Origin: Allocoleopsis franciscana PCC 7113
Lineage (GTDB): Bacteria > Cyanobacteriota > Cyanobacteriia > Cyanobacteriales > Coleofasciculaceae
Assembly: GCF_000317515.1 (NCBI RefSeq)
Contig: NC_019738.1
Span: 3,622,001-3,686,000, forward strand
DNA length: 64,000 bases
Direction: 5' to 3'
The notes beneath the pieces are model-generated. The model had not been told where the DNA came from. It saw nothing but the letters and a program-made list of their open reading frames with translations, and searched no databases. Of the stretch, positions 50,598 to 52,134 are shown piece by piece. Every line of letters begins with the position of its first letter. Positions within the stretch are counted from its first letter, which is position 1. A program made the translations under genes and the position numbers.

Positions 50598-50747
50598 CTC
50601 ACATTCCTCACTCAGCTATTACGCCTATAAATTAGGGCTTACCCATTACCTCTATATCTTCCGCAAAAGCGAAAGCTGGGCAACCACGGAGGGATTGCCC
50701 CTACAGATCGTGTGCGTGCCTAAGTCATCTTTTCTTCTGGCAGGAGA

Positions 50748-50777
50748 CTCCCGTTACAATCTTTGATTTAACGGGAG
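50748..50777 (-). repeat. Right-end hairpin of the IsrB element
   Basis: A 9-bp perfect stem (CTCCCGTTA/TAACGGGAG) that overlaps the last codons and the TAA of isrB. This packing is typical of compact IS605-type elements. Confidence 0.75.
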
Positions 50778-51874
50778 AGGAATGCCAGTCCTCCATGTAA
50801 GTTTACAACCAGGTGACTTGAGTAACTAATCAATCGGGTGTTTCTGTCGGTTACGCCTTGCTTGAGTCGCTTTTTAACAGGGAAGAATTGGTACAAATCG
50901 TTGGCGCTGATATATCCCTTTAGGGTTGAGCGCTTGGTTTTGTACTCAACATAATCCCCGTTCTTGAAGGAATGCGTTCCATCAAATCCGCCGTAAGTGT
51001 CGCGAACCCCGCCTGCTCCAACGGTCAAATCGTGCATTTTTCGGGGTCTTGAAGGTAGGCGTTCTACGATACCAAAAGTGAAAGGAGTCACCTGAACTAT
51101 TCCTTTCCATTGGTATCCTGTCTGCTCTTTGTGATGAGTATTAGCCGCATATCGGATAAAGTGTCTAGCGGCTTGCGCTATGGCATCCGATACATGTGCA
51201 GCAGGCGTTTGCTCTCCTTTGTTTTTGGACTTGGGTAGCTTGAGCCACTCCCTTGTTGCTTCGGTTTCCCATCCTTTAACCAAAGTCACGCTTACGCGAT
51301 TCTCTAGTTCTTTGATCAGGAATGTTTGACCTTGAGCGGCAACAGTAAAGCCAGGACTGTTTGACTGATTAAGTCGCTCCACATAAGCATGACAGATTGG
51401 GTACAGTCGTCGCAATTCGTCTACAACCCTCAGTTCTAGTTGTTTGTTGGCTCGAATACTGGGAGGTAGTTTAGATTGCCGACGATTGTTAAACCTCTTC
51501 TGTCTGTGGTTGCGAAGTTTAAACGAAAGGTTTCGTTTGATTCGTCTTCCTCGTCGTGTTCTGCGAAGTACAGCGCGTTCTGTTAATCGTTTTTGAACTT
51601 GCTTTTTGGGTAAGTTGAGGTTCAATCCAATTAAGGTTTCTTGTTTAGACTGAACAGCTACTCCGGTAAAGCAGCTTCCAGGGTCAATACCAAGACTAAT
51701 ATCTTGGCAATTTTTGCCTGACGGTTCTTTAACGAGTTGAACACAAAATACTGGCAAATCGTTCTTTACTACTCTGGCAAACCCGTCTCTAATCCAGCGC
51801 CTTGCTCTCGATGCTTTGGTTGGCATTGCCGGAGTTCCGTCAGGATTAAGGACTGGTACACGTTTGTTAAGCAT
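50768..51874 (-). CDS. IsrB-like RNA-guided nickase (RRXRR/PLMP-RuvC protein)
   Basis: 368 residues from the ATG giving MLNKRVPVLNPDGTPAMPTK; a TTG start 39 bp upstream lies in the presumed omega-RNA. The layout is an N-terminal PLMP domain, RuvC-I with catalytic Asp in SLGIDPGSCFTGVAVQ (about residue 64), an Arg-rich bridge helix (RAVLRRTRRGRRIKRN), RuvC-II Glu in AYVERLN (about 166), and RuvC-III His/Asp in AHVSDAIAQ (about 227-230). Between RuvC-II and -III there are only ~60 residues with no HNH motif, so this is IsrB rather than IscB. The C-terminal beta-rich part (GGVRDTYGGFDGTHSF) corresponds to the target-adjacent-motif-binding region. Characterised IsrB nicks DNA with an omega-RNA. 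Confidence 0.85.
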   Translation of the reverse strand: MLNKRVPVLNPDGTPAMPTKASRARRWIRDGFARVVKNDLPVFCVQLVKEPSGKNCQDISLGIDPGSCFTGVAVQSKQETLIGLNLNLPKKQVQKRLTERAVLRRTRRGRRIKRNLSFKLRNHRQKRFNNRRQSKLPPSIRANKQLELRVVDELRRLYPICHAYVERLNQSNSPGFTVAAQGQTFLIKELENRVSVTLVKGWETEATREWLKLPKSKNKGEQTPAAHVSDAIAQAARHFIRYAANTHHKEQTGYQWKGIVQVTPFTFGIVERLPSRPRKMHDLTVGAGGVRDTYGGFDGTHSFKNGDYVEYKTKRSTLKGYISANDLYQFFPVKKRLKQGVTDRNTRLISYSSHLVVNLHGGLAFLSR

Positions 51875-52110
51875 TGGAGATAATCCAGTTAACTGTACTT
51901 GTTGGTTTTCCAACTACCCCTCGCGCATTCTTAACACCGATTCCCGACAACTGATTGGGTCAAAGAGGTTGTCCGAGCTTGGGTGGCACCCGGAAGTCTG
52001 TAAGCGTTAAAAACTCGTGCGCTATTCAGCTTGCTTACCGCTTGAGGTTCAGTGATTCCTCGCAAGCTCCCGTTACAATCTTTGATTTAACGAGAGAAGC
52101 TGACATCAAT
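51875..52110 (-). ncRNA. Candidate omega-RNA of the IsrB element
   Basis: Noncoding region between the left-end hairpin and isrB, read leftward. It folds into several stems: GCTTGC..GCAAGC enclosing GAGG..CCTC, then GACAAC..GTTGTC, and GTTGGAAAACCAAC near the start codon. In IscB/IsrB elements the omega-RNA scaffold lies here, and its guide is copied from DNA just outside the left end. The exact boundaries, and whether the RNA runs into the coding sequence, cannot be seen. Confidence 0.65.
52067..52096 (-). repeat. Left-end hairpin of the IsrB element
   Basis: CTCCCGTTA paired with TAACGAGAG (one G-T wobble) around the same loop as the right-end hairpin. It lies about 40 bp after the ycf54 stop codon, marking the insertion boundary. 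Confidence 0.75.
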
Positions 52111-52134
52111 TTGCGACCTAGCTTACCACTTTAA

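What the first reader, a model, noticed from the sequence alone, without database searches (positions are those of the whole stretch)
50735..52110. Compact IsrB element: RuvC nickase lacking HNH, with IS605-type hairpin ends and no transposase
The protein has PLMP, RuvC-I/II/III and bridge-helix features but no HNH insertion, which defines IsrB. It is enclosed by directly repeated hairpins and contains no tnpA, so it is a minimal, transposase-dependent RNA-guided nickase element. The call rests on motif reading plus known IscB/IsrB organisation; activity is inferred. It is the most system-like object in the window.
Basis: partly seen in the sequence, partly recalled or inferred. Interest (0 to 1): 0.75.

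Follow-up and report, generated by a model that had tools for sequence, protein, structure and literature searches.

The report
Cyanobacterial IsrB element with ωRNA
This is a small mobile DNA element from a cyanobacterium that carries an IsrB gene, an RNA-guided DNA-nicking enzyme and miniature relative of Cas9, together with its guide RNA; it is a clear new copy of a known kind of element whose exact ends, target site and guide can be read from relatives.

Summary
Window 50729-52104 (1376 bp, gene on the minus strand) is an IsrB-carrying IS200/IS605-type element without tnpA. The protein (368 aa from ATG 51874) matches DtIsrB best by sequence (8dmb, E 5e-28) and by predicted fold (Z 28.4, 315 residues). 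It keeps D64/E166/H227/D230 and has only 60 residues between RuvC-II and RuvC-III, with no HNH. A same-genus genome has the site without the element. Empty sites of a homologous element in six genomes of another genus hold a single ATGA, so the element sits immediately 5' of ATGA, the known IsrB TAM type. Guide: AAGCTAGGTCGCAAATTGAT. No Y1 transposase with matching ends was found in the host. Relatives include two intact copies in Kastovskya, a gene-less ωRNA-only derivative there, and a copy in a 212-kb phage-like contig. It is a new member of a known kind. Activity and mobilisation remain inferred.

The parts
50729..52104 (-). whole IsrB element, 1376 bp, given in gene orientation (5' end at 52104)
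   Evidence: ends shared with two Kastovskya copies whose flanks differ; cut point relative to ATGA fixed by empty sites of homologous elements; absent from same-genus genome
50725..50728 (+). TCAT insertion target on the + strand, which is ATGA read with the gene = predicted target-adjacent motif (TAM)
   Evidence: (G)ATGA at the 3' end of the copies with clear 3' ends; a single ATGA between the flanks in empty sites
50768..51874 (-). isrB, 368 aa from ATG 51874, stop codon inside the 3' hairpin
   Evidence: dN/dS about 0.11-0.15 against Kastovskya copies
51683..51685 (-). RuvC-I catalytic Asp64 codon
   Evidence: invariant in 23 IsrB proteins; position
51377..51379 (-). RuvC-II catalytic Glu166 codon
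   Evidence: invariant; position
51185..51196 (-). RuvC-III HxxD motif (His227, Asp230)
   Evidence: invariant; 60 residues after Glu166, so no HNH insertion
50858..50869 (-). RxxQ (Arg336, Gln339), aligned with the DtIsrB TAM-reading Arg323 and Gln326
   Evidence: alignments; roles of R323 and Q326 from PMC9581776
51875..52104 (-). ωRNA scaffold (HEARO-like), 230 nt up to the start codon
   Evidence: weak HEARO hit 51909-52104, 28.5 bits; covariation 27 of 36 pairs
52067..52097 (-). 5' (gene-proximal) terminal hairpin = first hairpin of the ωRNA (SL1)
50748..50778 (-). 3' terminal hairpin, 30/31 identical to the 5' hairpin
52105..52124 (-). predicted 20-nt guide AAGCTAGGTCGCAAATTGAT, lying in flanking host DNA
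   Evidence: position by analogy with DtIsrB, 20-nt guide 5' of scaffold; only perfect match in the genome is this site
50631..50724 (.). dispersed cyanobacterial repeat next to which the element sits; not part of the element
   Evidence: partial copies elsewhere in the genome; also absent from the same-genus genome

Best explanation
It is an IsrB OMEGA element, a non-autonomous IS200/IS605-type transposon. Its transcript yields an ωRNA made of about 20 nt of flanking host DNA (guide) plus a 230-nt scaffold, and the downstream ORF makes IsrB, which binds it (inferred from tested relatives). A Y1 TnpA supplied in trans would excise the element as single-stranded DNA by recognising the matching terminal hairpins and the TCAT target, and would reinsert it 3' of another TCAT (end anatomy and target shown; transposase inferred). 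Excision leaves the guide-matching sequence directly followed by ATGA. IsrB-ωRNA should recognise that empty site and nick its non-target strand, favouring repair from a sister copy that still holds the element. The filled site is protected, because the guide match there is followed by GTCA and not by the TAM. Shown here: protein family, catalytic residues, lack of HNH, RNA structure, ends, target, purifying selection. Inferred: expression, nicking, retention benefit (I would put that step at about 0.6), source of TnpA.
For: Sequence: DtIsrB best hit E 5e-28, profile E 2e-67 over the whole length. Fold: Z 28.4 over 315 residues, TM 0.75/0.83. Catalytic residues invariant. TAM-reading R and Q conserved. 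RNA: HEARO-like hit at the right place, covariation score 0.712 against 0.256±0.029 shuffled and at most 0.19 for slid partners. Mobility: same ends with different flanks in relatives, site without the element in the same genus, a single ATGA in empty sites of a homologous element in six genomes, gene-less derivative with both ends. Selection: dN/dS about 0.11-0.15. Cyanobacterial IsrBs (Crocosphaera, Dolichospermum) nick DNA with an NTG TAM in vitro (PMC9581776).
Against: No TnpA with matching ends in the host and only one copy of this element there, so it may be immobile now. HEARO score is below Rfam's gathering threshold, 28.5 against 83. The exact pre-insertion allele (repeat present, element absent) was not found, and the site in the same-genus genome does not carry the TAM next to the guide match. 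Nicking was not tested.
Confidence: 0.9

Rival explanations
1. A decayed IscB that lost its HNH domain, so a broken IscB and not an IsrB.
For: N-terminal half matches the NCBIfam IscB model, and IscB structures are the next best folds.
Against: Full-length colinear match to DtIsrB; Z 28.4 against 23.9 or less for IscB; many cyanobacterial relatives with the same HNH-less layout; purifying selection.
Confidence: 0.04
2. An IsrB element that is now an immobile resident, kept by selection for a host function (for example RNA-guided regulation) or simply fading.
For: Single copy; no TnpA with matching ends in the genome; the other three IsrB genes in this genome are only 42-44% identical and one is broken.
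Against: Both ends and the ωRNA are intact; the same subfamily is at several sites in Kastovskya and in a phage-like contig; low dN/dS fits ordinary selection on active elements.
Confidence: 0.3
3. The terminal hairpins are transcription terminators or REP-like repeats that flank an ordinary gene by chance.
For: Cyanobacterial genomes are rich in short palindromic repeats, and such repeats are seen even inside the Kastovskya copies.
Against: Outside the two element ends, the pattern has no other match in the 7.97-Mb genome; the same end layout recurs in other IsrB subfamilies with other stem sequences; the segment they bound is missing at the orthologous site.
Confidence: 0.01

Closest known systems
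DtIsrB (Desulfovirgula thermocuniculi), PDB 8dmb, PMC9581776
   Same: Whole domain order PLMP-RuvC-bridge helix-RuvC-RuvC-TI, no HNH, catalytic residues, TAM-reading R and Q, ωRNA 5' of the gene, TGA-type TAM
   Different: About 27% identical; ωRNA scaffold 230 nt up to the start codon against 262 nt; shorter stretch after RuvC-II in the place of the HNH-like linker (HNHL)
Cyanobacterial IsrBs tested in PMC9581776 (CwIsrB, DsIsrB)
   Same: Same phylum and family, nicking shown in vitro, NTG TAM
   Different: Their sequences were not compared directly here. A Dolichospermum plasmid homologue is 45% identical. The window subfamily lacks the KADVDLTSGRK-like segment common in other cyanobacterial IsrBs
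IscB / ISC elements and HEARO RNA (RF02033)
   Same: Shared fold and ωRNA plan, RNA upstream of the gene starting at the element end
   Different: No HNH domain; RNA scores far below the HEARO gathering threshold
IS605/ISDra2 TnpB elements
   Same: Hairpin ends, insertion 3' of a short fixed target, nuclease guide read from the far flank, TAM equal to the insertion target (TnpB side from own knowledge)
   Different: TnpB is a different RuvC family; the IsrB gene runs in the opposite sense relative to the target side; no tnpA in cis

Membership tests
IsrB | N-terminal PLMP domain | tested here: met
   RVPVLNPDGTPAMPT aligned with DtIsrB RVPVVGVDGRPLMPT; modelled with pLDDT above 90 over residues 11-50
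IsrB | split RuvC with catalytic D, E, H/D | tested here: met
   D64, E166, H227, D230 invariant in 23 proteins
IsrB | arginine-rich bridge helix | tested here: met
   RRTRRGRRIKR in and after helix 90-108; Pfam RRXRR 149.8 bits
IsrB | no HNH domain between RuvC-II and RuvC-III | tested here: met
   60 residues only; no HNH Pfam hit at E up to 1; model shows helix-strand-helix
IsrB | C-terminal TAM-interacting domain with R323/Q326 equivalents | tested here: met
   R336/Q339 aligned
IsrB | ωRNA encoded directly upstream, guide at its 5' end | tested here: met
   covariation, HEARO-like hit starting at the element end; the guide itself is by analogy
IsrB | RNA-guided nicking of the non-target strand | not testable with these tools
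   needs biochemistry
IscB | HNH insertion | tested here: not met
   NCBIfam IscB 99.4 bits against cut-off 175
HEARO RNA (RF02033) | reaches Rfam gathering score 83 | tested here: not met
   28.5 bits, E 0.0035; related RNAs at other IsrB loci score 31-45
IS200/IS605-type element | subterminal hairpins at both ends | tested here: met
IS200/IS605-type element | insertion next to a fixed short target without target duplication | tested here: met
   shown on a homologous element: a single ATGA in empty sites of six genomes. For the window copy the target is read by analogy, since a nested repeat hides the joint
IS200/IS605-type element | Y1 tnpA in cis | tested here: not met
   none in the element; usual for IsrB/IscB loci (PMC9755519), so at most a non-autonomous member

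The most novel reading that the evidence does not exclude
The first ωRNA hairpin (SL1), reported as dispensable for nicking by DtIsrB, is kept because it is the transposase's end hairpin. Gene-less derivatives that keep both ends and a complete ωRNA spread in trans and supply extra guides to IsrB proteins encoded elsewhere, so that one nickase serves a set of scattered insertions.
Probability: 0.35. Interest if true: 0.45.

Novelty: new member of a known kind. Interest (0 to 1): 0.3.

Why it matters
It is one more HNH-less Cas9 relative, with a compact linker and a TAM that can be read from genome comparison. The set of filled and empty sites gives natural guide-target-TAM triplets for IsrB. 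The matching hairpins bear on an open remark in the IsrB structure paper, that SL1 is not needed for nicking and may serve transposon mobility.

Tried and rejected
AlphaFold with 12 sequences gave pLDDT 47 and was not used; 23 sequences gave 79. A Y1 TnpA with CTCCCGTTA-type ends was sought in the host and, at the 30 TnpA loci fetched, in ten relatives: none seen; the hairpin scan was simple and could miss imperfect stems. The orthologous site in the same-genus genome does not give the exact pre-insertion allele, because the 94-bp repeat is also missing there. HEARO as a search model misses the other three IsrB loci of the host. Empty-site comparisons were not all equally clean: for L093 all six genomes show ATGA before GTGCTAAA, but in one (L106) the bases just before it differ; for L094 three genomes show ATGA after CGCC, two of them with other bases following; for L092 only one genome (G056) aligns across the joint and it reads ATGC there. 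A statistical test of the match between 5' and 3' hairpin stems across subfamilies was left out, as few independent elements had both ends clear.

Full report
The thing itself. The ORF at window 50768-51913 (-) is best read from the ATG at 51874, which gives 368 aa and puts the start just before the PLMP domain. phmmer against solved structures returns DtIsrB (8dmb) at E 5e-28 and IscB proteins far behind; a profile of 23 relatives covers DtIsrB end to end at E 2e-67. Pfam finds only RRXRR. NCBIfam's IscB model matches only the N-terminal half, below its cut-off. The predicted structure (pLDDT 79, pTM 0.79) matches DtIsrB with Z 28.4 over 315 residues, ahead of all IscBs. D64, E166, H227 and D230 are invariant in the alignment, and 60 residues separate E166 and H227, so there is no room for an HNH domain. 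Arg336 and Gln339 align with the DtIsrB residues that read the TAM (roles from PMC9581776).

The ωRNA. Rfam's HEARO model hits 51909-52104 (-) over its full length, but at 28.5 bits, below the gathering score of 83. Hits of similar strength sit at the same place in several other cyanobacterial IsrB loci. An alignment of eight such regions folds into a common structure; 27 of 36 pairs show changes on both sides, 95% of cells are paired, and the covariation score is 0.712 against 0.256±0.029 in shuffles and at most 0.19 with slid partners. The RNA begins exactly at the element's end, and its first hairpin is the terminal hairpin of the element.

The ends and the target. The two 31-nt hairpins are 30/31 identical. 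Two Kastovskya adunca copies (87-89% identical protein; DNA in L040, L041) share GTCAGCTT at one end and AAGATGA at the other, with different flanks, although the 3' hairpin of one copy is interrupted by a short repeat. A same-genus genome has the orthologous site without window 50631-52107. The segment 50631-50724 of that stretch is a dispersed repeat with partial copies elsewhere in the genome, so the element seems to sit inside or at the edge of such a repeat. To place the cut exactly, three near-identical elements in another genus (G028) were compared with their congeners. For element L093, six genomes show ATGA between the flanks, five of them with CCCTCGA or a near match just before it; for L094 three genomes show ATGA; for L092 the one genome that aligns reads ATGC. 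In the filled sites a single ATGA lies at the 3' end. Hence the element inserts immediately 5' of ATGA, which is 3' of TCAT on the other strand, as IS605 elements do at their own targets. In several cases that ATGA looks like the start codon of a gene, as read from the sequences (L093, L094, L161). By analogy the window element is 50729-52104 with ATGA at 50725-50728, and the guide is AAGCTAGGTCGCAAATTGAT. Its only perfect match in the genome is its own flank, where it is followed by GTCA and so lacks the TAM.

Relatives. Of 97 genomes searched, 54 hold a relative at E 0.001 or better, some of which are IscB. The host has three more IsrB genes, 42-44% identical, one broken. Kastovskya also has a roughly 380-bp derivative with both ends and a whole ωRNA (87% identical to the window's over that part) but no gene. 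The next closest relative (63%) lies in 212-kb and 155-kb IMG/VR contigs; in the 212-kb one its neighbours are RIIA, RIIB and DNA ligase genes, as in T4-like phages. Between the window gene and the Kastovskya genes dN/dS is about 0.11-0.15, so the protein has been under selection.

Mechanism. The anatomy fits the accepted plan for OMEGA elements: TnpA excises, and the RNA-guided enzyme acts on the empty site, which carries guide match plus TAM, to favour return of the element. That plan is established for TnpB and IscB (own knowledge; the IsrB enzyme itself in PMC9581776). What a nick, as opposed to a double-strand break, does for retention is not told in the papers read here. No transposase with matching ends was found in the host: the one intact Y1 gene has AGCCTGC hairpins, and a second is a remnant beside a TnpB gene.

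Verdict. The element is a new member of a known kind. Tested cyanobacterial IsrBs already exist, so the find is not surprising. Its main use is a clean natural record of ends, target and guide, and the identity of SL1 with the transposon-end hairpin.

Noticed in passing
L206 (Kastovskya G008 C26, about 155393-155774): Gene-less derivative of the same element: both ends and a complete ωRNA, IsrB ORF gone, inserted after TCAT; a candidate trans-acting guide element.
   Followed up: partly
L007 (host genome C1 5558852-5559158): HEARO-like RNA (33 bits) without any IsrB/IscB ORF or remnant nearby; a hairpin and TTTTT-ATGAGC, which looks like a start codon, lie downstream, so it looks like another ωRNA-only element.
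   Followed up: partly
L161/L177 (IMG/VR contigs of 212 and 155 kb): Closest IsrB outside Kastovskya (63%) in a phage-like genome (RIIA, RIIB, DNA ligase nearby), inserted just before an ATGA that looks like a start codon; phages may carry these elements between hosts.
   Followed up: partly
L208 (G060 C31), 739-2482; also L102 810-889: A group II intron (domain V, and a reverse transcriptase ORF in L208) ends within a few bases of the isrB start codon in L208; a domain V also lies upstream of isrB in L102.
   Followed up: partly
L040 and L041 (Kastovskya IsrB copies): A short repeated sequence is inserted in frame in the C-terminal part of IsrB (TLRLGYFDKAQYKSVT), and related sequence sits between ωRNA and gene.
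   Followed up: no
window 50631-50724: Dispersed cyanobacterial repeat (TTAGGGCTTACCCA ... GGGCAACCACGG..GGATTGCCC) next to which the element sits; absent with it from the same-genus genome.
   Followed up: partly
L001 (host genome C1 6681900-6682244): The host's only intact Y1 TnpA, IS200 type, flanked by AGCCTGC hairpins of its own.
   Followed up: no
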